Source of the DNA: Microglena sp. YARC
Lineage: Eukaryota; Chlorophyta; Chlorophyceae; Chlamydomonadales; Chlamydomonadaceae
Length of the DNA stretch: 64,000 nt
Direction of reading: 5' to 3'
Assembly: GCA_022414725.1 (NCBI GenBank)
Contig: CM039463.1
Span: 94,167,963 to 94,231,962 of the forward strand
Shown here: one piece after another, positions 40,572 to 60,133 of the stretch
How the letters are laid out: each line of letters opens with the position of its first letter
Numbering within the stretch: the stretch's first letter is position 1
Position numbers and translations under genes: made by a program
The notes under the pieces: generated by a model
The model's database searches: none
What the model was told of the DNA's origin: nothing
The model's input: the letters and a program-made list of their open reading frames with translations, nothing else

Positions 40572-40899
40572 AACACGGTGTGATCGAACGGTGCGATAAA
40601 CGTCCCGGACAAAAACACGGGGTGATAAACACGAGAACGGGGTGATAAACTGGGCCCAGATAGTTAGATAGAATTAATCCAAATATAAACCAAAAATATC
40701 GTATCTACAGATAAAAATAGAATTACATTAATCCGCGGATTAATGTAATTCTATTTTTATCTGTAGATACGATATTTTTGGTTTATATTTGGATTAATTC
40801 TATCTAACTATCTGGGCCCAGTTTATCACCCCGTTCTCGTGTTTATCACCCCGTGTTTTTGTCCGGGACGTTTATCGCACCGTTCGATCACACCGTGTT
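40572..40899. repeat. Perfect 328-bp palindrome at the border of the virus-like region
   Basis: Two 164-base arms meet at ATCCGCGGAT with no spacer (centre 40,735/40,736) and are identical by my base-by-base check. Each arm begins AACACGGTGTGATC and holds three related iterons: CGGTGCGATAAAC, CGGGGTGATAAAC and CGGGGTGATAAAC. The left flank is the cut end of a Helitron-array unit. A related CACGGTGTGATA lies just outside at about 40,950. It may be a foldback transposon, a fused viral terminal repeat, or an assembly artefact of a hairpin. Confidence 0.93.
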
Positions 40900-41737
40900 T
40901 TTTGGCCTGAATTTCTAAAATGTCATCTCACCGCATCGGGTGTCGCGCACGGTGTGATACCGACGCGTATCTAACACAAATCCGATGTACATCTAACACA
41001 AATCTAATTCGGATCTATCCTAAACTGTCTGTACGGGGGCGAATTCTGGTTTGTTAGCGCGCATTGAATGAGTCGCAGTTCGACAGAGAGAGATTCGAGT
41101 TTGTATGGCTGTAATCTGTATGTATTTTGCGTGGTTTACACTCGTTTTTCGAAGCGCACACAAAACACTTGTCGTCGATTAAAGCCGCATTGAGTCTTAC
41201 GCAACCGCATTCACTGTGGTCCGGTACTCAAACGAAAGCCGTGTGTATCAAGCAGGCTTCTGCTTGACAACCCTAGTGAATTTCTGAAGGGAGGAGCGCG
41301 GGCACCGTGTAGCGGTGCAGAGGGATTCAGTTGCTGACTCGCACAGTGAATACGTAGGGTGCCGCCAACATATTCAACGGATTCCTGAAGGCCCTGCGTT
41401 CTCAAGCAGACTTCTGGTTGACAACTCTGTTGGATTTATGAAAGGGAAATCGCGGGCAGTGGAATTGAGCTGCTGACTCACTCACTCAGATTAAAGGGGT
41501 CCTGAAGACCACGTTGTATCAAAACATACTTCTGCTTGACAACTCTATTGGATTTACAAAGGGGAATCGCGGGCCCGCGGAGCAGGGCAGAGGGATTCTG
41601 CTGCAGAAATATCGGCGTCTGTCGCCTTCTTCTCATTGTCCATCTGACTCCACATGCAAACGGCGGAATCATTTCACACACAAGCATTGGAGCGTTTGTA
41701 TGAAGTTCTTCTTCCTCTGCTCATTATATCAAGGGTT
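40900..41737. other. Non-coding, three hairpin cassettes
   Basis: 40,900-41,240 shows GCGTATCTAACACAAATC-type short repeats (about 40,966, 40,991) and no gene. Three cassettes follow at 41,248-41,335, 41,401-41,475 and 41,520-41,600 (described under the cassette entries). Confidence 0.6.
41248..41605 (+). repeat. Double-hairpin cassettes, cluster 1
   Basis: Copy A: TCAAGCAGGCTTCTGCTTGA (41,248-41,267) then GCACCGTGTAGCGGTGC (41,302-41,318) and ATTCAGTTGCTGACTCG. Copy B (from 41,401) keeps the first hairpin (CAAGCAGACTTCTGGTTG) but has lost the second. Copy C (about 41,520-41,600) has a degenerate first hairpin and GGCCCGCGGAGCAGGGC. Confidence 0.8.
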
Positions 41738-43326: not shown

Positions 43327-43399
43327 GTAGTCCTCGGTGCCCGTCTTAAGCCTGTTTGAGACAACAAGTGGAAAGCTATACTTTATAAACAATCAATCA

Positions 43400-43735
43400 A
43401 TCGCGGGACCCACGGAGTGGGGCAGGGGAATTCAGCTGCGGACTCGCGGAAACACGTGTCGGATCTGACTTGTCCATCGGAGTACACACGCAAACGGCGG
43501 AACACTGTCGAATGTATCGGAGGACACACGCAAACGGCGGAACACTGTCGAATGTATCGGAGTACACACGCAAACGGCGGAACACTGTCGAATGTATCGG
43601 AGGACACAAGAGACCGACCGACCACCGAATGGCACACGCAGGACCCTCATTGACACACGCAAACGGCGGAACACATGTCGACGACCCTCATTGACACACG
43701 CAAACGGCGGAACACATGTCGACGACTCTCTTCAT
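43400..43735 (+). repeat. Hairpin cassette plus tandem CACGCAAACGGCGGAACAC repeats
   Basis: GACCCACGGAGTGGGGC (about 43,407-43,423) and AACACGTGTCGGATCTGACT mark a cassette lacking the first hairpin. Then three units of period 40 (about 43,480-43,600) and two more near 43,650-43,725 each contain CACGCAAACGGCGGAACAC. A single CATGCAAACGGCGGAATC lies at about 41,653, just upstream of the DUF3669 frame. Confidence 0.85.
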
Positions 43736-44099: not shown

Positions 44100-44675
44100 A
44101 TGCCGACACAACCTTGTCAGCCCATTTCAAAGCCAGTCCGCCAACTAGGAAGGGCGCTGGACATGGACAGTCTCGACACATCCAAGTTTCTTGATCGCCT
44201 CCACTGCCGGAATGTCAGCCGTCTCAATGCACTGCGGACGTCATCGGCTACTTCCGGCGATCCACGCGTCTTGGAGTATAACGCATTGCGCCACCTAATT
44301 AAACAAAAACACCACACATCCCCATCGTCACGTTTGTTCCTCGTCGCTGTGGAGTACGTCTTCGATGACGGCTGCTTCAAGCGCGCCAACGGGGACGCCC
44401 TTGTATTCTCACATGCTATCAACACACTTTTCGTGGTGGAGACGAAAATCCTCAAAGCCCCTGCCAAAACTGGAAATGCCAAGGTGTTGAAAGCCATACA
44501 GCAGGCCACTATGTGCGCGAGTAGACTTTCGTCCTGGATACCGCATCTCATCAACATTGACATGAAAGACGGAACAACACTTGGATCTGTGACAATTCGT
44601 CGTATGATCGTGACAGCTGTGGATCGCGGTGGACGCGTCTTCAGTCAAGATATCCGCAGCCAGGAAATTGACTAA
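44100..44675 (+). CDS. Possible PD-(D/E)XK-type nuclease, 191 aa
   Basis: Intronless frame. Residues 98-116 read GDALVFSHAINTLFVVETK: a GD, a hydrophobic strand and then E-x-K, the arrangement of the PD-(D/E)XK nuclease core, preceded by a conserved-looking strand LFLVAVEYVFDD. The C-terminal half (KVLKAIQQATMCASRLSSWIP, VTIRRMIVTAVD) is compatible with the helices and strand that follow in this fold. I cannot name a family. Flanked by a CT-rich leader and, 65 bases downstream, by a tRNA-like sequence on the other strand. Alternative: an unrelated hypothetical protein that happens to contain ExK. Confidence 0.55.
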   Translation: MPTQPCQPISKPVRQLGRALDMDSLDTSKFLDRLHCRNVSRLNALRTSSATSGDPRVLEYNALRHLIKQKHHTSPSSRLFLVAVEYVFDDGCFKRANGDALVFSHAINTLFVVETKILKAPAKTGNAKVLKAIQQATMCASRLSSWIPHLINIDMKDGTTLGSVTIRRMIVTAVDRGGRVFSQDIRSQEID

Positions 44676-45065
44676 CTTAGTTAACTTAATTGACTAACTC
44701 AGGTAACTTGATTAACTAAAGGTGGAACTTTGGCAAAACACTGGAGGTACCAAGATTCGAACCCGGATCTTATATATCGCTCAGTGGGCGACATGATCAA
44801 GGAATGAAGAAAATTGACTTAACCTCACGCTCTACCACTGAGCTACAACCCCGTTGACAGATTAGCAACTAAACAATTGTTTTAATAAAAACGAGTGCAA
44901 ACAACTTTGATCCATACAGGTCTCGGCATTGTTTTGCTGAGTATGTAACGTTCCCCCTCTCCCCCAGATGGATGTAACGTTCCCTCTCTCTCTCTCTACA
45001 ATAAACAGCATTGTTTTGCTAAGTGTGTAACTTCTCCTCTCTCTCTTTTTTTATTATAAACAAAA
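44676..45065. other. Non-coding around the tRNA-like sequence
   Basis: Contains the tRNA-like sequence and, at 44,925-44,950, GTCTCGGCATTGTTTTGCTG, which matches the complement of 17,555-17,585 in the 6.15-kb insert. TTGTTTTGCTRAGTRTGTAAC is duplicated at about 44,931 and 45,009, followed by (CT)n. Confidence 0.6.
44742..44852 (-). tRNA. tRNA-like sequence, class II, possible tRNA-Leu with short intron
   Basis: On the minus strand: 5' GGGGTTGTAGCTCAGTGG (A box TAGCTCAGTGG), D arm GCTC...GAGC, T arm with B box GGGTTCGAATCTTGG, and 3' TACCTCCA. The 111-nt length leaves room for a short anticodon-loop intron and a long variable arm (TCGC/GCGA stem). A class II arm would fit Leu or Ser; one alignment gives a TAA anticodon. 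The acceptor stem has mismatches, so it may be a pseudogene or a viral tRNA. Confidence 0.5.
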
Positions 45066-46619
45066 GTGTAGCGCTTGTATCGGTTGTAGCACCTACAGCA
45101 AAAGGCTAATATATGGAACGGAAAGTTGAAATTATTGCTGAGAGCCGTACAAACGATGCAAACGCTACAGGACACCGGATCGTGTCTTAGGGAGCGTCTA
45201 CAAAAGACACCCGCAAGGTTTCAAGCAGGCGCCATGCTCTACAAAACATACATCTTCTCCCTCTCTTTTTTTTATCATAAAAAAAAAAGTGTAGCGCTTG
45301 TATCGGTTGTAGCACCTACAGCAAAAGGCTAATATATGGAACGGAAAGTTGAAACTATTGCTGAGAGCCGTACAAACGATGCAAACGCTACAGGACACCG
45401 GATCGTGTCTTAGGGAGCGTCTACAAAAGACACCCGCAAGGTTTCAAGCAGGCGCCATGCTCTACAAAACATACATCTTCTCTCTCTCTTTTTTTTATTA
45501 TAAAAAAAAGTGTAGCGCTTGTATCGGTTGTAGCACCTACAGCAAAAGGCTAATATATGGAACGGAAAGTTGAAACTATTGCTGAGAGCCGTACAAACGA
45601 TGCAAACGCTACAGGACACCGGATCGTGTCTTAGGGAGCGTCTACAAAAGACACCCGCAAGGTTTCAAGCAGGCGCCATGCTCTACAAAACATACATCTT
45701 CTCTCTCTCTTTTTTTTATTATAAAAAAAAAGTGTAGCGCTTGTATCGGTTGTAGCACCTACAGCAAAAGGCTAATATATGGAACGGAAAGTTGAAATTA
45801 TTGCTGAGAAGCGTACAAACGATGCAAACGCTACAGGACACCGGATCGTGTCTTAGGGAGCGTCTACAAAAGACACCCGCAAGGTTTCAAGCAGGCGCCA
45901 TGCTCTACAAAACATACATCTTCTCTCTCTCTTTTTTTTATTATAAAAAAAAAGTGTAGCGCTTGTATCGGTTGTAGCACCTACAGCAAAAGGCTAATAT
46001 ATGGAACGGAAAGTTGAAACTATTGCTGAGAGCCGTACAAACGATGCAAACGCTACAGGACACCGGATCGTGTCTTAGGGAGCGTCTACAAAAGACACCC
46101 GCAAGGTTTCAAGCAGGCGCCATGCTCTACAAAACATACATCTTCTCTCTCTCTTTTTTTCATTATAAAAAAAAGGGTAGCGCTTGTATCGGTTGTAGCA
46201 CCTACAGCAAAAGGCTAATATATGGAACGAAAAGTTGAAACTATTGCTGAGAAGCGTACAAACGATGCAAACGCTACAGGACACCGGATCGTGTCTTAGG
46301 GAGCGTCTACAAAAGACACCCGCAAGGTTTCAAGCAGGCGCCATGCTCTACAAAACATACATCTTCTCTCTCTCTTTTTTTATTATAATAAAAAAAAAGT
46401 GTAGCGCTTGTATCGGTTGTAGCACCTACAGCAAAAGGCTAATATATGGAACGAAAAGTTGAAACTATTGCTGAGAGCCGTACAAACGATGCAAACGCTA
46501 CAGGACACCGGATCGTGTCTTAGGGAGAGTCTACACAAGAAACCCGCAAGGTTTCAAGCAGGCGCCATGCTATACAAAACATACATCTCCTCTCTCTCTT
46601 TTTTTATTATAAAAAAAAA
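45066..46619 (+). repeat. Seven tandem ~222-bp repeats upstream of the primase gene
   Basis: Units start with GTGTAGCGCTTGTATCGG at about 45,066, 45,289, 45,510, 45,731, 45,953, 46,175 and 46,398 and are >95% alike by eye. Each contains CAGCAAAAGGCTAATATATG, ACACCGGATCGTGTCTTAGG, a (CT)n block and a T run followed by ATTATAAAAAAA. Each unit encodes the same short frame (MKLLLRAVQTMQTL...). The array ends 58 bases before the primase start; the last short frame runs on into it. Confidence 0.95.
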
Positions 46620-46677
46620 GTGTAGCGTTTGTAGCGCACAATTATACAAAGCGTATAAGGATCGTGTGCGGTATGTT

Positions 46678-47385
46678 ATGAACATGGAAATGAGCGACAT
46701 CATTCGCGAAACCTATGATTGGCTCTTGCAATGCGGTCGAGACGTGGTCGGTGACACCGTCCTCATCCCTACCGGAGCGAAGAAACCTATCGTTTGTCAC
46801 AAGGAGCCCGGGCAGTGGTCCATGGAAAAGGCGCATCTTTACATGGTCAAAAACCCTGAGCATGCGCAGTGGGGACTTCTCCAGGATTCGTTGTGCGTTG
46901 TCGACGCCGACTCTGACGATGCGGTGGCAAAGATTGAGGCCCTACAAGACCCTGACGTCGTCGAAGCCCTCTCGGTGTGCCCCATCCAACAGACCAACAA
47001 GGGCCGGCATTATCTGTTCATTCGCCCAGAGTGGGCGGACGCGGAAGGTTACTGGGATGGCGCACGACAGGTCATCGGTTTTGACGCCGATTTGAAGACG
47101 CGTTGTTCCACCGGTACACGCGGCGTCTTGGCGATATGCCCTTCCTTGAACAAGACGTGGGTGCGTGAGCCGTGGGCTGCGGGGACGAAGCTCGTCGATA
47201 TACCTCGGACGTTGATGGAGCTGGTGGCGAAACCAAAACAAAAGAAACAAAAGAAACAAAAGTCAATCAAAGTTGTGGTCAATGCCGATATCGATCACGC
47301 AAGTGGTGCACCCGAGGCGTTTGATGAGGTAGCGGCGCTAGTCGATATCATCGCCGCTTCCCGCGCAAGCTCATACCGCACATAG
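46678..47385 (+). CDS. Primase-polymerase (AEP) domain, N-terminal part of a Prim-Pol/SF3 helicase
   Basis: A 235-codon frame from ATG 46,678, chosen because upstream codons are tandem-repeat sequence. Archaeo-eukaryotic primase signatures: VVDADSD (74-80, metal-binding acidic motif), NKGRHYLF (107-114) and FDADLKT (135-141), with an early TGAKKPIV and a Lys-rich linker at 187-197. AEP primase-polymerases prime and extend DNA during replication of plasmids and DNA viruses, normally fused to a D5-type helicase. The frame ends at TAG 47,383-47,385, directly followed in the same frame by an ATG and the helicase N-terminal region. It is therefore probably the front part of one ancestral protein cut by a nonsense codon, or an abutting gene pair. 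Confidence 0.8.
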   Translation: MNMEMSDIIRETYDWLLQCGRDVVGDTVLIPTGAKKPIVCHKEPGQWSMEKAHLYMVKNPEHAQWGLLQDSLCVVDADSDDAVAKIEALQDPDVVEALSVCPIQQTNKGRHYLFIRPEWADAEGYWDGARQVIGFDADLKTRCSTGTRGVLAICPSLNKTWVREPWAAGTKLVDIPRTLMELVAKPKQKKQKKQKSIKVVVNADIDHASGAPEAFDEVAALVDIIAASRASSYRT

Positions 47386-48360
47386 ATGGAAGTCGGGTGG
47401 TGTCTGCACAACATATCGCCCACCCATCTCCCATTGTGGGAACTCTTCAGCAAAAAGTGCCCGGAGAAGTACACAAAGGGGCAGTGTTGCGAGGTATGGG
47501 GCACAATGAATTCGGATGATCGCGCGGGCTTGCGCTTGCGCTTGCGCCTAGGCTCTTTGCACATGTGGGCCAGACACGACTCCCCGGTTGAGTATTGGGA
47601 CATCGTCAGTCAGCGCGTCATCGAGGACATCCGCACGTGCAACGGGAGCCATAACGAGATCGCGCGCATCGCGAAAAAAATACTTGGCAAACGCATCGCT
47701 TCCGCGAGCACGAACGGCAAGATATGGTACGTATTCGACGGGCGATGGAAGACGGACGTCGCCGCGATCCACGTCAAGCACGAGCTGTCCACCGTTGTTC
47801 TAGAGCACTTCATTATCGCTATGAACAAGGAGAGAGCGTCCCAAAGCGCTTACGACATGCAGAGCAACGCGAGCACAAAGAACGACGCCGACCGGCTAGC
47901 GCACATCACCGCGCGCCTCCAGGACGCGACCTTCAAGAATAACGTCCTGCAAGAGATGCTCGAGAACTTTTACGACCCGGACTTCATGAAGAAACTCGAC
48001 GCCGACCCAAACCTCTTAGGGTTCAACAACGGCGTGTGGGACCTAAAAAACGGCGTCTTCCGTCAAGGGCATCCGGAGGACATGGTCTCCATGTCCGTGG
48101 GATTCGATTACAATGTCGCAGTGTGCGCGGAATCAGCAGACCGCGTGCGGAAATACTGGGACACGATGCACCCCGACGACAACCAACGAGAATACCTCAT
48201 CCACACATTTGCTAGACAGCTGTACGGAGACAGCGGACAAGAGCTCTTTCACATACACGCCGGCGCCAAGTGTCCGCCTCTAACGGGAAGACCAAGTTCT
48301 TCGAAGTCATGGAGATCGCATTGGGCGACTACATCCGGAAATTCGGCGTGGAAATGCTGA
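47386..48360 (+). pseudogene. D5-type helicase N-terminal region, frameshifted before the Walker A motif
   Basis: In frame with the primase, starting immediately after its TAG. It contains a D5_N-like region: NLLGFNNGVWDLKNGVFR (about residues 205-222), a hallmark placed just before the SF3 ATPase domain in D5-type primase-helicases, then PDDNQREYLIHTFARQLYG and ELFHIHAG. At about 48,258-48,270, where the phosphate-binding loop should begin, the reading frame is lost by one base and the last 30 codons are unrelated. The rest of the helicase is in another frame (next entry). Confidence 0.78.
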
Positions 48361-49079
48361 CAAGCAAGCAACGCATCGATCCAGGTCGCCCGATGCCAGA
48401 GTTTGCGACGTGGAAGGGGGTCCGCATTATGTATTGCACAGAGCCAAACCACGACGAAGTCTTAAATTCCGGAGTCCTCAAGGATATGACCGGTGGGGAA
48501 GGCATCACCTACCGCCTCTTGCACTCCAGCGACATCGTACGCTTCCGCCCACAACACAAGATACACATCATGTGCAACGCCCCGCCGATGGTCGACGGTT
48601 CTGACTCGGGAGTCCAACGACGGATACGAAAACTCGACTACATCAGTCGGTTTGTGGACGCGGATGATGCGGACGCCGCCAAATTCCTCTTCCCACGAGA
48701 CGCAGGGCTTGTAGAGTCATTCAAGGCAGACGGCGCGATGCGCATGGAGTTCCTACGCACCCTTCTACACGCGTTTGCATACGAGTACAAGTTCGATATG
48801 CCCGATTCGTTAAAGAAGACCAGTGCGATGTACTTGAACGCGAACGACGCCGTGGCTATGTTCGTCGAAGAGCACGTTGCGGCCAGCCCGGACAGCGCAT
48901 TTCTGCTGAAGGAGGCCAAAGAACACTTCAAGACATGCGAATATTTCAACGGGAAACTCAGCACGATCAAGACGGACCTGGAACGTCACCTAAGCGTCAG
49001 GTGTATAGAGCAAAGCCGCGTCAAAAGCCGCGGAAACGAAAATTTGCGAGGGGTTTTCAAAGGATACAGGCTGGTGTAA
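48270..49079 (+). CDS. SF3 helicase ATPase domain and C-terminus
   Basis: Continues the broken primase-helicase in a +1 frame; the apparent GTG start is an artefact. SF3 motifs: Walker A ASNGKT, motif B GVRIMYCTEPNHDE, motif B' LKDMTGGEGITYR, motif C HKIHIMCNAPP with the downstream arginines VQRRIRK. A C-terminal winged-helix-like end (LSTIKTDLERHLSV ... GVFKGYRLV) resembles the tail of viral D5 helicases. As a hexameric 3'-5' helicase it would unwind the element's origin. All catalytic motifs are intact, which argues for a recent break or a sequencing error rather than long decay. Stop TAA at 49,077. Confidence 0.82.
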   Translation: MSASNGKTKFFEVMEIALGDYIRKFGVEMLTSKQRIDPGRPMPEFATWKGVRIMYCTEPNHDEVLNSGVLKDMTGGEGITYRLLHSSDIVRFRPQHKIHIMCNAPPMVDGSDSGVQRRIRKLDYISRFVDADDADAAKFLFPRDAGLVESFKADGAMRMEFLRTLLHAFAYEYKFDMPDSLKKTSAMYLNANDAVAMFVEEHVAASPDSAFLLKEAKEHFKTCEYFNGKLSTIKTDLERHLSVRCIEQSRVKSRGNENLRGVFKGYRLV

Positions 49080-49144
49080 AGAATCGATTGTTATAAGGTA
49101 GGTCCACCAAGCAGGGGTGGGTTTGCAAAACAATCGCTCTCGTA

Positions 49145-49660
49145 TATCGAAAGGGATTCGCGGGCCCCACTCCGTGGGGCAGTGGAATTGAGCTGCTGAC
49201 TCGTGGGAACACGTGTCGGATATGACTTGTTTACACTCGTGGTTTGAGGGTGCGCGGAAACACGTGTCGTCAAGCAGACTTCTGCTTGACAACTATGTCG
49301 GGATTATGAAGGAGGAATCACGGGACCCACGGAGTGGGGCAGTGGAATTCAGCTGCTGACTCGTGTGAAGCTTCGAGGCGCGCGAAAACACGTGTCAGAG
49401 CTGACCTGTTTACACACGTATTTTCATGGGCGCGAGGAAAACACATGTGTAGTCTCAAGCAGACGTCTGCTTGACAATCTATTTCGGGATCATGAAAGGG
49501 AAATCGCGGGACCCACGGAGTGGGGCAGTGGAATTCAGCTGATGACTCCCAGAAACACGTGTCGGATCTGACATGTTTACACTCGTGGTTAGAGGAGCAT
49601 GGGGAACACGTGTCGTCTCAAGCAGGATTCTGCTTGAGAGCATTCGGTTTTCGCCCGTGT
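49145..49660 (+). repeat. Double-hairpin cassettes, cluster 2 (3-4 copies)
   Basis: Follows the helicase stop. First hairpins at 49,270-49,289 (TCAAGCAGACTTCTGCTTGA), 49,455-49,474 (TCAAGCAGACGTCTGCTTGA, a perfect palindrome) and about 49,618-49,636 (TCAAGCAGGATTCTGCTTGA). Second hairpins at 49,164-49,180 (GCCCCACTCCGTGGGGC, loop reversed), 49,324-49,340 and 49,510-49,526 (both ACCCACGGAGTGGGGC). Between them lie AACACGTGTC palindromes (five here) and TGTTTACACTCGTGGTT. Confidence 0.9.
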
Positions 49661-50946: not shown

Positions 50947-51504
50947 TCAAGTCGATCGCGTTCCAATCTCGCTAGACATGGAAACTACCCACTTGGCAGT
51001 GCAGCACAACGGTGGGGCTGTGACTGTGGATGTATTTCCAGAACCAGGCACATTTGCAGCTAGTTGGAATGCATACGTGGCCTTCAACATCTTCACCCAG
51101 TCAGATCCGTGATGGTCATGATACTGACTGAGTTGTAAGATGGTGTCTCGACCGGCTAGGGGAATGCTGCACGGGTGAGAGACAGATACGATGACGGCAA
51201 GAGCTTTCGACTGCAGGGCATTGTGTAACAATTGGCGGCCTTGTACATTAAAAAGATGGATGTCATCAAATGCTAGCACATTGAAACCGTCAAGTGAAGG
51301 TGATTCTGATTCAGACAGTTTACACAACGTTGCCTCTGGTGTATGTAAAGCATGGTACTCCTTGTTATGTTCTGTCATGACCAATATTAGAGTGGTTGGT
51401 GAATGTTGAGCAATAAGTTGAGTGATAGCGTGACTCTTCCCACTTTCCCTGCGCCCTAAAATGTATATTACTTGTGGCTTACAAGTTGTCTGTGTGATGC
51501 TCAT
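50947..51504 (-). CDS. P-loop ATPase 1, packaging-ATPase type (A32/FtsK-like), 185 aa
   Basis: Starts MSITQTTCKPQVIYILG. Walker A GRRESGKS (17-24), Walker B FNVLAFDDIH (74-83), a sensor-like VIVSVSHPCSIP (105-115) and a C-terminal AFQLAANVPGSGN. Domain order and size resemble compact A32-like genome-packaging ATPases of polinton-like viruses, virophages and large DNA viruses, which drive DNA into capsids. It is paralogous to the gene at 55,114-55,689 over its full length. Other P-loop families (for example small ABC- or AAA-like NTPases) are not excluded because the motif context is short. Its last 166 bases overlap the antisense frame ending at 51,112. A hairpin cassette lies between it and the T5orf172 gene. 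Confidence 0.68.
   Translation of the reverse strand: MSITQTTCKPQVIYILGRRESGKSHAITQLIAQHSPTTLILVMTEHNKEYHALHTPEATLCKLSESESPSLDGFNVLAFDDIHLFNVQGRQLLHNALQSKALAVIVSVSHPCSIPLAGRDTILQLSQYHDHHGSDWVKMLKATYAFQLAANVPGSGNTSTVTAPPLCCTAKWVVSMSSEIGTRST
50978..51112 (+). CDS. Antisense-overlap partner of ATPase 1 (partial)
   Basis: Plus-strand frame METTHLAVQHNGGAVTV, then TFAASWNAYVAFNIF and stop TGA at 51,110. The frame is open back to about 50,879 and is homologous to the C-terminal part of the minus-strand gene at 55,536-55,970 (HNGPVP ... TFAASWNSYLAFNLF). It lies wholly opposite the 3' end of ATPase 1. The upstream half of the longer partner is not recognisable here, so this copy is truncated or has a missed upstream exon. 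Function unknown. Confidence 0.5.
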   Translation: METTHLAVQHNGGAVTVDVFPEPGTFAASWNAYVAFNIFTQSDP

Positions 51505-51761
51505 TTACTCACCTGACTAGGGAATTTGATGCATATAATAAACGCAACCAACCAAGCTACAGTCGGCGTGTCCTGGAAGCCAAGACTAGGCTTGCTATGG
51601 GGTTGTTCCACCATGGATAATAGCAAGTTGGTGAACCGTGACCATTACAGAGGTACGTAGCGCATAATTACAAGCTGGCAGGTTCTTCGGAACGCAGTGT
51701 CGACTCACGTCAAACGGCGACCACTCTCACTGTGGTCAGGGCCTCCAAAGGAGACGCATGT

Positions 51762-51900
51762 TTCAAGCAGGATTCTGCTTGAGAACCCTTTTGGGTTTCT
51801 GAAGGGGGGAGCGCGGGCCCCGCGGAGCGGGGCAGAGGGATTCAGTTGCTGATTTTATTAAACAAGCGGCGGATGAAGGAACACACAATAAAGTTATCGG
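51762..51900 (+). repeat. Double-hairpin cassette, copy between ATPase 1 and the T5orf172 gene
   Basis: TTCAAGCAGGATTCTGCTTG (about 51,762) then GCCCCGCGGAGCGGGGC (51,817-51,833; 7-bp perfect stem) and GATTCAGTTGCTGATTTTAT. The end TTTTATTAAACAAGCGRCGG is shared with the copy at about 54,270. No AACACGTGTC here. Confidence 0.9.
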
Positions 51901-51915
51901 AACGGTGATACAGTG

Positions 51916-53193
51916 TCAAGCCCACATCTTCTCACGCATGTCATTGATGACATCCGTAATGCAGAAAGAGTAAACAGCACCCGTGTTGCAGCGTCGCTTG
52001 GAGGCGCCCCTCAAGCCAAGCTTGGACATCTTGAGACCAAACTTGATCAAGGTGGTTTCATGTTTAGGAGAACCAGGGATCGGGGATAGCCAGTCATTGA
52101 ACATGGAGAACAAGGTGGCCGCCGTGAAGCTCACAGAATCATCGATACGGGGATGCGAGACGCTCTGCTCTTGCATCAGGTGCAAGAGTAATTGGGACTC
52201 AATCAGCAGGATGTCTTCGGGGATAGCTTTTTGCAGGGTGTACCTCGTGTCCAGGTCGCACTCCTGGACGACCTGCGCCAGCTTTACAACGTCAGCAACA
52301 GTCGCCTGTAGCCCCTCCTTTTTGCAGAACGTGACGTAAGCGTGGTACATGCCCGGGGTCGTGGCGATATGCGGTCGCAGATCGCCGGGGTTGGTGGCAA
52401 TGCACCGCTCATCCAGAAAGCGGAGGACATTCTTGTGGCGAGTGAAGTCGGGGAACCGCAGGGCACGACGGGGAAGCAGCAGGCCGTCGAAAATGTGCTG
52501 GATGGGTTGGATGCCCAGATCCTTGAGCGATGATACCACTTTCTTGGCGGTGAAGCTCGACCTGAGGGCGGCAGATAGCTTCGACAGTACCCGATCGACA
52601 AATGCGCCCTGATCCAACACCGCACCAGACAGCTCTGTTGCATTGGCCTCGACAAAGGCGTGCACCGTATCGTAACACTCGATGTTAGCCTGAACGACGT
52701 TGTCGAAAATCACAGTCACCACACGTGAGACGTACGTCTCACGATCCATACGCTCCTGGTCCGTCTCCTTAGATTCAACGGCGGATTCCACGGATCCCTC
52801 AGATTCCACGGATTCATCACGTGGAGTGTCACACTCCTCCTGTTTGCCACCGCAGTCGTCACCATACCATGCGTACTTCGAAGCGGCCGCAAACATACCA
52901 TTGTAAACGGTGGCTTCGCCCACTTCGAAGTACTCGGCACCCACATCTCTTCGTGGCTGGATTCGGGAATCGGAACCAACGCGCATGTACCTGAGCAGTC
53001 TCGCCTCTGCATCCACACACGCTTGTGCATCTCGAACATGGATGGCAAAAATGAGCTGGGATCCATTGGGGTACTGCGCGAGCCTCCTGCAGAACGGCTG
53101 GCTGGTACGACCGACCTTGACGACCAACGGGTACTTGCCCAGGAACTCGCGCTCGACGAGGGCGTACACGACGTGTTGGGTGTGGTGCGCCAT
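51916..53193 (-). CDS. GIY-YIG-like T5orf172-domain protein, 425 aa
   Basis: ATG at 53,193 (MAHHTQHVVYALVER) is preferred over the upstream ATG at 53,367, whose extra 58 codons precede the domain and lack its character. N-terminal domain (about 7-95): VVYALVE (8-14), VVKVGRT (24-30), R36/R37, a central E63 (DAEARLL) and AEYFEV, the T5orf172/MUG113 branch of GIY-YIG endonucleases common in large DNA viruses and phages. An acidic, Ser-rich linker follows at about 115-145. The C-terminal ~80 residues (LFSMFNDWL ... LIKFGLKMSKLGLRGAS ... GAVYSFCITDV) resemble the winged-helix end of viral primase/D5 proteins. A DNA-binding or DNA-cleaving role is inferred. Hairpin cassettes flank it on both sides. 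Confidence 0.72.
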   Translation of the reverse strand: MAHHTQHVVYALVEREFLGKYPLVVKVGRTSQPFCRRLAQYPNGSQLIFAIHVRDAQACVDAEARLLRYMRVGSDSRIQPRRDVGAEYFEVGEATVYNGMFAAASKYAWYGDDCGGKQEECDTPRDESVESEGSVESAVESKETDQERMDRETYVSRVVTVIFDNVVQANIECYDTVHAFVEANATELSGAVLDQGAFVDRVLSKLSAALRSSFTAKKVVSSLKDLGIQPIQHIFDGLLLPRRALRFPDFTRHKNVLRFLDERCIATNPGDLRPHIATTPGMYHAYVTFCKKEGLQATVADVVKLAQVVQECDLDTRYTLQKAIPEDILLIESQLLLHLMQEQSVSHPRIDDSVSFTAATLFSMFNDWLSPIPGSPKHETTLIKFGLKMSKLGLRGASKRRCNTGAVYSFCITDVINDMREKMWA

Positions 53194-53423
53194 GGATGGA
53201 TGATACACAAAGGGAAGGCTTGACTCAACCAAGATGCTTGTCGCGAGCTTTATATCGTGATAATCGAGCGTTTTTACGAGGTCCATGCGAGATCCACCAT
53301 GACACCATGACACCATGACAATATGTGTGTCATGAATGTACGGACGGGGGGCTGCAAAAGCCGCCATGGCATGTGTGTGTGTGCGAATGAATTATGGACG
53401 GGGTCGCAAATGGTGATCACATG

Positions 53424-53510
53424 CCAAGCAGACTCCTGTTCGACAAATCTATTGCATTGTTAAGGGGGAATCGCGGGCCCCACGGAGTGGGGCAGTGGAA
53501 TTCATCTTCA
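53424..53510 (+). repeat. Double-hairpin cassette, degenerate first hairpin
   Basis: CCAAGCAGACTCCTGTTCGA, then GCCCCACGGAGTGGGGC (53,477-53,493) and AGTGGAATTCA. Followed to 53,650 by three CACACRYACCACGGCGGCTT/AGCAGCCCCCC-type repeats. Confidence 0.85.
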
Positions 53511-53649
53511 CACACACCAAGGCGGCTTGCGCAGCCCCCCCGTTCGTCCATTCATTCTCACACATACCACGGCGGCTTTAGCAGCCCCCCGTCAGTCCAT
53601 TCATTCATCTTCACACACGCACGGCGGCTTCGAAAAACGAGTGTAAACG

Positions 53650-54005
53650 GAGGGGGGAACATCCAAAATTGAGAAATCATCCACTTCTTTTGCTTAACAA
53701 ATCTTCATGATCATGATGATATCGAGTCTCGAGTGAAGTGTGTGGCTCACGCCCGACAGATCATTCATGGGGATTGCCCAGACCCAGATGTCTGATAACA
53801 CACTCGAGGTTGGCTTACCTCTCGGATCGATGAGAGTGCTGTCAAGGAAGCCGACCACAGCTTGTGAAGACGAGCAGTTCCTCCTCTAGGGAACCGTTAG
53901 ACTCGCAACTTCAAAAGCTGGGAAAAGCTACCTGGGCACTCTGTACGGTCCTTGAGGGTTCGATGATGATTGATGCATTGGATGCGATTCATTATTCTTC
54001 TTAGT
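53650..54005. other. Non-coding spacer
   Basis: No gene or repeat recognised. Confidence 0.45.
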
Positions 54006-54024
54006 TATGATTCAGTCATCTGAC

Positions 54025-54550
54025 TTGTTTACACTCGTGTTTCGAGGGGGAACACGTGTCGTCTCAGACAGACTTCTGCTTGACAACTATTTAGGGATTA
54101 ATGAAAGAGGAATCGCGGGACCCACGGAGTGGGGCAGTGGAATTGAGCTGCGGACTCGCGGAAACATTGATTGTATTGTATCAATCATACTCCTGCTCGA
54201 CAACTCTGGTGGAACTATGAAGGGGGGATCACGGGCACCGCGGAGCGGGGCAGAGGGATTCAGTTGCTGATTTTATTAAACAAGCGACGGAGCCCCTTTC
54301 ACCTCCCCCCAGCGGAGCGACCGGGGGCGACCGGAGGGGAGCCCCCAATGGAAGTCCGCGAGGAAACGAGCGGGTGGGCGACCGGAGGGGAAATAATAAC
54401 AGTTCAATAATAGACAGACAGATAGGAGCAGATCTCTGTTGGTTTTTATGAAGGGAGTGGAATCACCATGCTAATTGGAACCTGACTCAATAGAAAACGG
54501 TGGTATGATGATGAAATGTGTCAAGCAGACGCCTGGTCGAGGAAAAACTA
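54025..54550 (+). repeat. Double-hairpin cassettes, cluster 3
   Basis: AACACGTGTCGTC at about 54,050, then a first hairpin variant CAGACAGACTTCTGCTTGAC (about 54,065), ACCCACGGAGTGGGGC (to about 54,135), a second copy with ATACTCCTGCTCGACAAC (about 54,190) and GCACCGCGGAGCGGGGC (54,235-54,251), and a partial first hairpin TCAAGCAGACGCCTGGTCGA (about 54,521). Between them GC-rich GCGACCGGAGGGG repeats (54,335-54,395). Confidence 0.85.
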
Positions 54551-55113
54551 TTTGTTTCACTTGTTTCATCAAAAAAGAAAAGTATAAGAAGATCGCCATG
54601 TGGCTCGACTCGACAGGTTCCGCCGTCCTTGATGAGATGAGAGAGGTCGCCGTGTGACTTCAAATAGAGAGAATCATGTCACACACAAACAACCTCTAAA
54701 ACATATGTCTGCATATGCCGACTCTTCAAATTGCCTTTCAAATAGAGAGAATCATGTCACACAGTCTTTTCAGAGGTGTTGTTCATGTGAACACGTTTAA
54801 TATAGGGATTGATGTGAGCCTCCGGCATTATTCTTCAGTATTTATTTTTTGTTGAAATAATTGTTGTTCCCGAGATGGAGAGTCTTTTCAGAGGTGTTCA
54901 TGTGAACACGTTTAAAATAGGGATTGATGTGAGCCTCCGGGATTGATGTGAGCCTACAAAAATAGGGATTGATGTGAGCCTACAGCATGTGGGGAGTTGT
55001 CTATGTGATTACAAAAATACAAGGTTCATGGAAACCGTCGAGTGTAAAGAGAATAAAGCAAATGTATGCAGTTGATGGTTGATTGATAGTTGACTTAATT
55101 TGAAAATAATTGT
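54551..55113. repeat. Short direct repeats upstream of ATPase 2
   Basis: AAATAGAGAGAATCATGTCA at about 54,663 and 54,738; GTCTTTTCAGAGGTGTT and CATGTGAACACGTTTAA at about 54,763 and 54,882; GGGATTGATGTGAGCCT four times between 54,806 and 54,980. No gene is supported; a 60-codon frame at 54,475-54,657 has no family resemblance. These may be promoter-region repeats. Confidence 0.75.
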
Positions 55114-55689
55114 ATGTCTGAGCACGTCATTACATTAAGTGGCATCCACCACCATGCACCATGCACCGACCTTGCCATTCTAGACCACCCTCATGTGATG
55201 TATATTGTTGGGCGTAGGCAGGCTGGAAAGAGCTTCATGATCACAAACGAAATAGGGGATGGTGCATCCACTTTGGTGGTTTGTGAGACAGACCATGACG
55301 TAACTCATCATAAACTGCATTCCCCAATTGCAATTATGAGCATGCGAGACACCCTGGATAGCCTAATCGGGTTTCGGATTATAGTTTTGGACAACGTCAT
55401 TTTCAATTCGACAGACAGGCTACTACAAGATGCTCTATCACTGTCTGTCAAAACTGGAACACGGTTAATTGTAGCAGTTTCACATCCACTCAGTATCCCA
55501 GCTGATGGCGATGGGATAATTATACAACTGAGTGACTACAAAGACTCATGTGGCGTGCAATGCCTAAACAAATTAAAAGCCAAGTATGAATTCCAGCTGG
55601 CCGCAAATGTGCTGGGTATAGGAAACATCTCCAAGGGAACCGGTCCGTTGTGTTCAGCGGATATGCACTCCGCATCCATATCGCAGTAA
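55114..55689 (+). CDS. P-loop ATPase 2, packaging-ATPase type, 191 aa
   Basis: Full-length paralogue of the 50,947-51,504 gene. Walker A GRRQAGKS (33-40), Walker B FRIIVLDN (87-94; Asn where paralogue 1 has a second Asp), sensor-like LIVAVSHPLSIP (118-129), and YEFQLAANVLGIGN. The Asn could lower ATPase activity or mark a specialised partner. Same inferred role as ATPase 1: DNA translocation during packaging or another DNA-associated NTPase function. Opposite orientation to ATPase 1. Its last 154 bases overlap the convergent gene at 55,536-55,970 in the same relative phase as at the other locus. Stop TAA at 55,687. Confidence 0.68.
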   Translation: MSEHVITLSGIHHHAPCTDLAILDHPHVMYIVGRRQAGKSFMITNEIGDGASTLVVCETDHDVTHHKLHSPIAIMSMRDTLDSLIGFRIIVLDNVIFNSTDRLLQDALSLSVKTGTRLIVAVSHPLSIPADGDGIIIQLSDYKDSCGVQCLNKLKAKYEFQLAANVLGIGNISKGTGPLCSADMHSASISQ

Positions 55690-55970
55690 TGCGATAGAGT
55701 GACTCGGGTAAGAGCGTGCGCATCATCCACTGCAGTGATGTGGAAGCTCCATATGCAGTCCATTGGGCTAATGTTCCTAAGCTTGCACAATGTGACTGTG
55801 TAAGATCCGTGCCCACACGGATCCTCTCTAGTCCAGGGGCCGTAAGTCTCACTGGATGCTGAAGGGGCGAACTTATCGATGATGAACTCCCACACATCAT
55901 CATCCTCTTGAATTCGATCTATGCCTGATGTACGAGTGTTGTCAACAATCACCGACTTTACAGAATACAT
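55536..55970 (-). CDS. Antisense-overlap partner of ATPase 2, 144 aa
   Basis: Minus-strand frame MYSVKSVIVDNTRTSGIDRI ... ending NSYLAFNLFRHCTPHESL. Residues 45-90 (YGPWTREDPCGHGSYTVTL, PMDCIWSFHITAVDD) read like a beta-rich globular or virion protein; no family recognised. The C-terminal third is opposite ATPase 2, and its homologue is found opposite ATPase 1 (50,978-51,112). Codon differences between the two copies are mostly third-position and silent in this frame (for example GCA/GCG, GCT/GCC, AGT/AGC, TTC/TTT, AAC/AAT), which favours real coding. Confidence 0.58.
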   Translation of the reverse strand: MYSVKSVIVDNTRTSGIDRIQEDDDVWEFIIDKFAPSASSETYGPWTREDPCGHGSYTVTLCKLRNISPMDCIWSFHITAVDDAHALTRVTLSHYCDMDAECISAEHNGPVPLEMFPIPSTFAASWNSYLAFNLFRHCTPHESL

Positions 55971-57680: not shown

Positions 57681-60133
57681 TTACTCCTCCTCCTCCCCCC
57701 CCTCCTCGTCCTCCTCTTCCTCCTCCTTCTCCTCCTCCATGTCCCCATCCCCATCTTCCTCCTCCTCCATCTCCTCCTCCTCAGCAATGTCTGCATTGTC
57801 TCCATCCGATTGCACAGCCTCTGCCCTGGTGTCCTTCTCAATGGATTGACAAGCTAGGAGCATGCTTGTGTGGTACTTTCTCTGGATCTTCATACCCTTG
57901 GTGGGTTCGCAGCTAAATTGAAATGCGTCAATGGGAATATCGCCCGTCCATGTTGCTTTTCTCCTAACCCCCACGGTAATAGGCACAAGCTTGTGGTCCA
58001 TCCAATCTTCTGGCCAAGTTGGGTATTGTGTTTCAGTGTACACCAACTTCTGAGCCCCAGAGTACAAGGGCTTTAAATACACACATTCCACTTCTCCATT
58101 CACTGGTAGTGATTTGACCTCCACCACGTCCCATCCTCTCAATCCGCTAGAGTCATCCATTTGTACCTTGACCACAGCGACATGACCAACAACCAAATCA
58201 GTAGTGGGCTCGTAGGCTATTCTTCTATCCGGCTTCGTCCCTTGTGAAGAATATAAGTACAACACATCCTCCTCCTCTGGCCTTTCCATATTAGACTCCA
58301 AAGTGTGTGCGACCTTCATAGTCTTGGCAATCTCGTTACTTGCAGGTAAAAGGTCTGACACATCCATGGACAAGTCATCCAATGATGCTATCAAGCGCTT
58401 GGCCATTGATTTCTCAGACTGTGTCAGAACACGACTGGTTGCTGACAACTCCGATGGGAAGTCGACAAAATGTTGGTCTTCGGGTACTCCCCAGTCACAG
58501 CATCATCTGGTTGAGTGCTCCAATAACTCTTCTCAACGTTGAAGAAATCAGTCCACCACTTATTGCTGGCTTCCCAAGTTTCACGAAGCTTCTCGGCAAT
58601 ATGTTTGAAGGTCTGGGCATGGGATGGGCCATCGGCTGCTGGTTCATCCATCTGCTGCTGGTCATCGGCTTCTGGTTCTAGAAGGTCCTCCGCTGCGTGT
58701 CGTACACGGACATCAGCTACGGGTCCTGCACGGTCGTCACCGGCGGTTTGTACAGGACCATCGGCCATGTGGCCTGCAAGGACGTCACCTCCGGGCTTCT
58801 CGTTATGAATAGTCTTCCAGACAGCCGCCCAGTTTGCCTCGATATTCTCGAGCTCTTCAATCTTGATCTCGGGGGCTTCCTTAAATACTGTTCTGGTGTC
58901 CACCAGTGGGAAGCCTTGGAGGACGTAAATAGGTTCAGCGTCATTGTCCCACTGTCCTCTCCAAGATCCTGACTCGTCATACTCCTTGTAATAGACCCCT
59001 GCAATTGTTGGTGTGCAAACATGTATTGTATATTAGTGAATCATTTAGGACACCCATATTCCTCCCGACTATACTCGGGAGCATCCCTTGGATAATACAT
59101 CCTAGGTCCTAGGTACAACTTCCTTTGTATCATTTAATTTCTATTGAAGACTGTACATGTAAATCAATGAGGACATGGCACACCCATATTCCTCCCGAGC
59201 ATAATCGGGAGCATTGTGCAGACAGTACATACACGCACGGTAGCATTTAATTTGTAAATATCAGTATATCAAGTATTCTTACCGACTCTCCCGTTGGGAC
59301 CTTTCGTTATCTTGAATGCGTGTAAACGGCGATTAACTCCTTTGACGGTGCTAGTGCCATGACCGAACAACTTGTAAACGTTGTCTAGGAGGACAGCGGA
59401 GAAGTCCCCTATAGAGGTCACGACGTCTTGCCTTGTGTAAGGGCCCATTCTCTTGAATAAGTTACCAACAATGCCCATCAGATGGTCCAGGGTGTACACT
59501 TCCATGTTCTTTAACACTTGCGAGATCACAGAGTACTTTTGGTCAAGATTGCTATGTGTGTGTCCGGGAGGGAGGAAATGGACGTACACTTCCTCAAACC
59601 AGTTCATCTCAACCAACAAGGACAAGTATGCGAACATGAAAGCGTTCTTGTTGTCCTTTGCCGCGTTGTCCATTTGCAAGAAGCAATACGGTGGAAGCTG
59701 CCCCTCTTCTTCAAGGACCCGGTTGAAGAAATGTTGGAAGCATGATATAGTCAGATTGATGGACTGCGAGTAGAATGGCAAAGCCCAATAACCAATGAAG
59801 CCTCTTCCCTGGGAGAATAATCCTGAGTTAACATAGAAGGAAACATGAAGTCAGAATATTAGCATTATTTTGTCAAGTAATCATTTCAAGTTTTAAATAC
59901 TGTGTATGCTCCCGATTATGATCGGGAGGACATGTCCTACATGCGCTGTATTTGTACTCACGCATGATGCGTGTCTTTAGAAGTTCACCTCCTGCGGTCT
60001 TCTTTGTATGTGAGAAGTGGCGTGACTGAGGAAGATTAGTCTTCTTGTTGTCCATTGCATCAGCGGATGCGTGCAAGAAGAGCTTTGGATACTGTTCAGA
60101 CAGTTTTTCACGGATGTCATACCTACGCCTTGA
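57681..60133 (-). pseudogene. DUF7869-like gene, three visible exons, 5' end missing, one frameshift
   Basis: Minus-strand exons: 59,962-60,133, 59,283-59,822, and 57,681-58,998, with GT-AG junctions and matching phases. Exon 2 holds LPPYCFLQMDNAAKDNKNAF and the HFLPPGHTHSNLDQKYSVIS block, the DN...KN...GHTHxxxDQxFS signature of DUF7869, whose function is not established; an RNase-H-like, transposon-derived origin is possible. The last exon carries VYYKEYDESGSWRGQWDND and an Ala/Asp-rich linker, then changes frame near 58,455 and continues (SATSRVLTQSEKSMAKRL ... ) into a Glu/Asp-rich end. Upstream exons are absent; 60,140-60,400 shows none. Introns contain the CTCCCGA..TCGGGAG palindromes. 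Confidence 0.65.

What the first reader, a model, noticed from the sequence alone, without database searches (positions are those of the whole stretch)
50947..55970. Two paralogous ATPase loci, each with a conserved antisense gene over its 3' end in the same phase
ATPase 1 (minus) and ATPase 2 (plus) are full-length paralogues. Opposite the 3' end of each lies a second frame whose products are also homologous (both contain HNG and TFAASWN-x-Y-x-AFN-x-F). The overlap is 166 and 154 bases and the frame phase is the same at both loci: third codon positions of the two strands coincide. Most base differences between the loci are silent in both frames at once. That is what dual coding under selection would look like, and it suggests a gene pair that duplicated as a unit and inverted. 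I know of no described system with this arrangement.
Basis: partly seen in the sequence, partly recalled or inferred. Interest (0 to 1): 0.86.

Follow-up and report, generated by a model that had tools for sequence, protein, structure and literature searches.

The report
Two viral genes sharing opposite DNA strands
In what looks like viral DNA inserted into a eukaryote's genome, the tail ends of two real genes, a DNA-packaging-type ATPase and an unknown small protein, are written on opposite strands of the same stretch, so one stretch of DNA has to serve two proteins at once.

Summary
The arrangement is real. The overlaps are 166 and 154 bases, and third codon positions face each other at both loci. 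At locus 2 both genes are intact. At locus 1 the antisense gene has lost about its first 90-95 residues. The partner is a genuine protein family: nine homologues at E <= 2e-9, conserved outside the overlap, with a predicted eight-stranded fold.

The overlap has two zones. ATPase residues 141-166 hold the last helix of a packaging-ATPase-like fold, so both frames probably matter there. Residues 167-191 are predicted disordered and change as a mirror of the partner (position-1/2 change ratio 0.46 against 1.24 outside, permutation p = 1e-4).

'Most differences silent in both frames' fails: 16-23 of 58, and this phase makes double silence common anyway. A local inverted duplication is not supported. 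Antisense overlaps are known in many DNA viruses; this pair turned up in none of my paper searches.

The parts
55114..55689 (+). ATPase 2, 191 aa; P-loop ATPase, fold like viral packaging ATPase B204
55536..55970 (-). partner 2, intact, 144 aa, orphan family, predicted 8-stranded beta sandwich
   Evidence: homologues; alignment; model
55536..55611 (.). core of overlap 2 (ATPase residues 141-166): ATPase last helix 145-165 opposite partner residues 121-144
55612..55689 (.). tail of overlap 2 (ATPase residues 167-191 and stop): disordered ATPase tail, changing in the partner's pattern
   Evidence: c1/c2 ratio 0.46 vs 1.24, p 1e-4; pLDDT < 50
50947..51504 (-). ATPase 1, 185 aa; its last 7 residues lie beyond the usual S(M/I)SQ-stop end
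   Evidence: ORF; alignment
50951..51112 (+). partner 1 remnant (C-terminal third only), stop TGA at 51110-51112
   Evidence: tblastn P0009 E 1e-17, P0010 E 4e-26; stop codon
46459..49079 (+). neighbouring replication gene, broken into three reading frames (46459-47385, 47386-48360, 48270-49079); PriCT_2 and D5_N in the middle piece; that the outer pieces belong to it is my reading; left as it is
   Evidence: Pfam; ORFs
51916..53367 (-). 483-aa frame with a sub-threshold T5orf172 (GIY-YIG-like) match, between the two loci
   Evidence: Pfam, E 0.003, 18.4 bits against cut-off 20

Best explanation
A conserved tail-to-tail gene pair from an integrated DNA-virus-like element: a short P-loop ATPase of the genome-packaging kind, and an orphan beta-sandwich protein of about 147 aa. 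They share about 30-51 codons with third position facing third. SHOWN by sequence and prediction: both frames belong to families conserved outside the overlap, the overlap recurs in at least one other lineage, and its ATPase tail is one-sided. SUPPORTED less firmly: the core is used by both proteins. FOLLOWS FROM THE CODE: in this phase TA faces TA, so a TAA/TAG stop on one strand must face a Tyr (or stop) codon on the other, and a Tyr preceded by a codon ending in T/C forces a stop opposite. Hence the partner's stop faces the invariant ATPase Tyr (locus 2, P0003/P0007, P0005/P0009), and the ATPase stop faces partner Tyr95 (locus 2) or a Tyr nearer the partner's end (P0003/P0007). An intact partner with His/Tyr/Asp-Tyr95 caps how far the ATPase can run. 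INFERRED: the ATPase once ended near residue 166, lost its stop, and now carries a disordered tail whose length is set by the partner's tyrosines. The ATPase pumps the element's genome into a capsid (about 60% likely). The partner is a virion or assembly accessory protein made from the other strand (about 40%).
For: Partner family: 4 of 5 candidates at E <= 0.05 with the single query; 10 of 1530 candidates at E <= 1 with the 5-sequence profile, 9 of them at E <= 2e-9. FAASWN is invariant in 10 of 10 aligned. Joint encoding: of 70 ATPase-partner pairings, own pairs reach 53 and 51 codons (they must), P0005/P0009 50, P0003/P0007 30 (whole overlap, both stops), ATP1/P0010 29; four more reach 20-26; the other 61 reach at most 14; the second-best register never exceeds 6. 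P0003 and P0007 both report a longest contig of 8326 bases. ATPase tail c1/c2 0.46 vs 1.24 outside (p 1e-4, 6 sequences); 0.50 vs 1.23 (p 2e-4, 5); 0.52 vs 1.20 (p 0.001, 4). ATPase core 1.14, 1.22 and 0.96, none distinguishable from outside. Partner opposite the core 0.79 vs 1.14 (p 0.05, 8 sequences). ATPase model folded 26-166 with last helix 145-165, tail pLDDT < 50. STIV2/STIV B204 packaging ATPase aligns through residue 164. P0001 and P0002, whose tails have changed, match ATPase 2 through residue 167.
Confidence: 0.7

Rival explanations
1. The antisense frame is only a shadow of the ATPase: no partner gene exists, and its conservation is the automatic mirror of a conserved ATPase end in a low-stop phase.
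For: With the ATPase fixed and codons random, the partner read keeps 75-78% identity and is often open; 67-79% of third-position changes silent in one frame are silent in the other. At locus 1 only the part opposite the ATPase survives.
Against: The partner is conserved for ~92 residues outside the overlap in several full-length homologues and folds confidently there. The ATPase tail changes with the partner's pattern, not its own.
Confidence: 0.04
2. The reverse: the partner is the old gene and everything in the ATPase frame after about residue 140 is a passive read of its opposite strand.
For: Likely true for residues 167-191. With the partner fixed, the ATPase read keeps 67-83% identity by geometry.
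Against: The last helix 145-165 is part of the confident model and of the B204 match. The core keeps the ATPase's own c1/c2 pattern. Tyr and Asp of the S-x-Y-x-D motif stay conserved at locus 1, where the partner already ends before them.
Confidence: 0.15
3. A local event: one gene pair duplicated within this region and inverted.
For: Opposite orientation and the same phase at both loci; shared ~100-base intergenic repeats lie around both; ATPase 1 has no sampled relative nearer than ATPase 2.
Against: Only one significant DNA match, of 61 bases, in the stretches compared; 42% ATPase identity outside the overlap; nearer relatives elsewhere of partner 1 and of ATPase 2.
Confidence: 0.12
4. A host gene pair, not a viral one: the ATPase is a cellular P-loop enzyme and the partner a MATH/TRAF-like adaptor.
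Confidence: 0.15

Closest known systems
Antisense (antiparallel, convergent) overlapping genes of dsDNA viruses (surveys PMC7017920 and PMC8903798, passages read)
   Same: Two coding frames on opposite strands, overlap over 50 nt; phase in which a codon of one frame strongly limits the other and opposite stops are rare (passage of PMC8903798; that it is this phase I infer from its remark that two tyrosines in a row force an opposite stop).
   Different: Those surveys count annotated frames; here both products are supported by conservation outside the overlap, and zones of one-sided and two-sided constraint can be told apart.
Viral genome-packaging ATPases such as STIV2 B204 (PDB 4kfu); that B204 belongs with the FtsK/HerA (A32-like) kind is recalled
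   Different: 13-15% identity; shorter (about 140 folded residues); the last helix shares its DNA with another gene; second Walker B acid is Asn in 6 of 7 sequences.
Polinton-like viruses integrated in algal genomes (PMC10675990, passages read)
   Same: Integrated elements with an A32 ATPase in a eukaryotic (green algal) genome.
   Different: No major or minor capsid gene recognised here; the replication gene nearby is D5/PriCT_2 type and broken; the host of this window is not known to me.
MATH/TRAF-type beta sandwiches (SPOP, PDB 9hgg)
   Same: Beta sandwich, 99 residues aligned at 3.5 A.

Membership tests
Antisense overlapping gene pair | two protein-coding frames on opposite strands sharing more than 50 nt | tested here: met
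   154 nt at locus 2, both frames with conserved homologues. Locus 1: 166 nt, but the partner is truncated.
Antisense overlapping gene pair | both frames under purifying selection in the shared DNA | tested here: inconclusive
   Tail follows the partner's pattern, core keeps the ATPase's; partner side borderline (p 0.05, 0.05, 0.17); synonymous test not significant; only two DNA copies available.
A32-like / FtsK-HerA packaging ATPase | Walker A GxxxxGK[ST] | tested here: met
   G33, G38, K39, S40 invariant in 7 of 7
A32-like / FtsK-HerA packaging ATPase | Walker B with two acidic residues | tested here: inconclusive
   First Asp (D93) invariant in 7 of 7; second is Asn in 6 of 7, Asp only at locus 1
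A32-like / FtsK-HerA packaging ATPase | fold of the whole domain including the last helix | tested here: met
A32-like / FtsK-HerA packaging ATPase | recognised by a family profile | tested here: inconclusive
   ATPase 1: AAA_14 below cut-off (24.8 of 27 bits) and weaker hits; ATPase 2: 14.3 bits
A32-like / FtsK-HerA packaging ATPase | DNA translocation into capsids | not testable with these tools
   needs biochemistry
Polinton-like virus / Preplasmiviricota element | double and single jelly-roll capsid genes | tested here: inconclusive
   none recognised in the 30 of 108 frames of 100+ aa scanned with Pfam; Pfam often misses them (recalled) and the element's ends are unknown
Polinton-like virus / Preplasmiviricota element | own replication gene | tested here: met
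   PriCT_2 and D5_N in 47386-48360; gene broken; that it belongs to the same element is inferred
MATH/TRAF domain (partner) | beta-sandwich fold with clear structural match | tested here: inconclusive

The most novel reading that the evidence does not exclude
An undescribed family of virus-like elements keeps a double-strand coding module in which the final helix of the packaging ATPase and the closing strands of a beta-sandwich protein are written on opposite strands, and each gene's stop codon is locked opposite a conserved tyrosine of the other. The overlap was kept while the proteins diverged to about 50-60% identity, and ATPase frames that still mirror the partner run past that lock only where the partner is broken (locus 1) or must be altered (P0005).
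Probability: 0.45. Interest if true: 0.66.

Novelty: new variant of a known kind. Interest (0 to 1): 0.52.

Why it matters
Long antisense overlaps in which both products are supported outside the shared DNA are useful test cases: here one can begin to tell which codons serve two proteins and which serve one, and a rule of the code (Tyr faces stop) predicts where each gene may end. It also adds an orphan protein family tied to a packaging-type ATPase in what look like eukaryotic virus-like elements.

Tried and rejected
Six viral-contig scans with the ATPase and partner and one with the helicase piece of the replication gene gave no relative; tblastn of P0007 in phage records gave none. PDB sequence searches with both alignments gave only hits at E 0.44 or weaker. 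The window's own genome could not be searched: the genome search gave no answer in 21 tries. A synonymous-constraint test between the two loci was not significant. The direct DNA contrast of position 1 and 2 changes (58/39 outside, 10/19 inside, Fisher p 0.02) was replaced by a column permutation on more sequences. Pairwise counts are not independent and are not used as a test. Rows dropped: P0001 from the ATPase counts (near copy of ATPase 2), then P0002 and ATPase 1 in turn; P0012 and P0014, then also P0011 and P0013, from partner counts (all variants reported); P0015 (E 0.1) from the partner alignment; P0012 and P0015 from the joint-encoding pairings. Absent from the 50 listed structural matches of the partner: any viral jelly-roll capsid protein; this excludes nothing. 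Idea of a chance open frame: rejected because of conservation outside the overlap.

Full report
What is there. ATPase 1 (50947-51504, minus) and ATPase 2 (55114-55689, plus) are P-loop proteins of 185 and 191 aa. On the opposite strand of ATPase 2 lies an intact 144-codon frame (55536-55970). Opposite ATPase 1 only the last ~53 codons of the same kind of protein remain, stopping at 51110-51112.

Locus 1 is half a pair. P0010 (150 aa) matches the locus 1 remnant at 84% over 56 aa, and from DMETT to its end differs in one residue; the N-terminal ~95 residues of P0010 have no significant match there. ATPase 1 runs 7 residues past the end seen in ATPase 2 (SISQ-stop) and P0004 (SMSQ-stop). I read this as a copy broken at that point.

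Does the overlap occur elsewhere? DNA of the homologues was out of reach, so I asked whether one DNA in this phase can encode a given ATPase and a given partner together. Of 70 pairings, the window's own pairs reach 53 and 51 codons, as they must; P0005/P0009 reaches 50 and P0003/P0007 30. The last covers the whole overlap from the partner's stop to the ATPase's stop; both proteins report a longest contig of 8326 bases. ATP1/P0010 reaches 29. Four further pairings of relatives reach 20 (three) or 26 (one); the remaining 61 reach at most 14, and the second-best register never exceeds 6. P0004 fits none of the ten partners (at most 7), so its partner, if any, is unsampled. P0005 and P0009 come from contigs of different length (1431 and 638) and part company just after the ATPase's SMSQ, so they are near relatives of one locus, not proven to be one.

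What does not count as evidence. With the ATPase protein fixed and codons drawn at random, the partner read stays open in 56% or 35% of draws and keeps 75-78% identity; the reverse gives 19-40% open and 67-83% identity. So similarity of the two antisense products within the overlap, and silence in both frames, are largely geometry. The count itself is 16 to 23 of 58, not most. Identical codons are commoner in the overlap (13 of 24 against 16 of 48) but not significantly (p = 0.13).

A rule that explains the ends. In this phase TA faces TA. A TAA or TAG stop must face a Tyr codon or another stop, and a Tyr codon preceded by a codon ending in T or C forces a stop opposite. At locus 2 the partner's stop faces ATPase Tyr142 and the ATPase's stop faces partner Tyr95; in P0003/P0007 and P0005/P0009 the partner's stop also faces an ATPase Tyr, and in P0003/P0007 the ATPase's stop faces a Tyr nearer the partner's C-terminus. 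At locus 1 the partner's stop is TGA and faces a His. Tyr95 is present in 7 of 10 aligned partners, each time after His, Tyr or Asp, whose codons always end in T or C, so an intact partner of this type sets a ceiling on the ATPase frame. The frames that still mirror the partner and run further are locus 1, where the partner is broken, and P0005, whose next residue (Ser) cannot face a Tyr. This is deduction from the code plus the alignments; it was not tested on new DNA.

Setting. A broken replication gene with PriCT_2 and D5_N lies about 2 kb from locus 1, and a frame with a sub-threshold T5orf172 match lies between the loci. No capsid gene was recognised in the 30 of 108 frames of 100+ aa that were scanned. 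A PIF1 helicase frame, a sub-threshold retroelement match (Pol_BBD, 25.5 of 27 bits) and an Rfam tRNA match of 111 nt for a 71-position model suggest a eukaryotic nuclear genome; the species is unknown to me. That the pair belongs to a Polinton-like or related element is an inference from the ATPase and the replication gene.

Literature. Surveys list antisense overlaps of more than 50 nt in 490 dsDNA virus genomes (PMC7017920, passages) and put antisense frames at 6.6% of overlaps, one of them the most constrained with the fewest opposite stops (PMC8903798, passages). Overlaps longer than 100 bases, and convergent ones, are also known in prokaryotes (PMC2174442, passages). I found no paper on this pair: terms for Polinton-like viruses with ATPase, overlap and antisense gave two papers, seen only as listings; three other searches gave none. 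So the arrangement is a new case of a known phenomenon, with an orphan partner and an unusually readable split into double and single coding.

Noticed in passing
window 41244-41607, 43386-43440, 49143-49640, 51759-51873, 53424-53512, 54018-54291: A repeat of about 100-150 bases with two short inverted repeats (TCAAGCAG..CTGCTTGA and CCCACGGAGTGGG) recurs between genes around both loci; folds are strong in two of five copies tested (z -4.1 and -4.5). Possibly the element's intergenic signal or a small mobile repeat.
   Followed up: partly
window 44742-44852 (-): Rfam tRNA match 111 nt long for a 71-position model, suggesting an intron; ARAGORN reported none.
   Followed up: no
window 45044-46676: Tandem array of about 222-base units, seven overlapping 300-nt copies listed, next to the broken replication gene.
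   Followed up: no
window 40572-40899: Perfect inverted repeat, two 164-base arms with no spacer; could be real or an assembly fold-back.
   Followed up: no
window 44100-44675 (+): 191-aa frame whose spacing of D, E-x-K and Q looks to me like a PD-(D/E)XK nuclease; Pfam gives nothing.
   Followed up: no
window 59269-59781 (-): 170-aa frame with a strong DUF7869 match (E 8.5e-35).
   Followed up: no
window 54282-54347 and protein P0001: The tail of ATPase relative P0001 contains a peptide (KRRSPFHL..PPAERPGAT) also encoded upstream of ATPase 2, so P0001 may be a copy whose end was replaced by that sequence.
   Followed up: no
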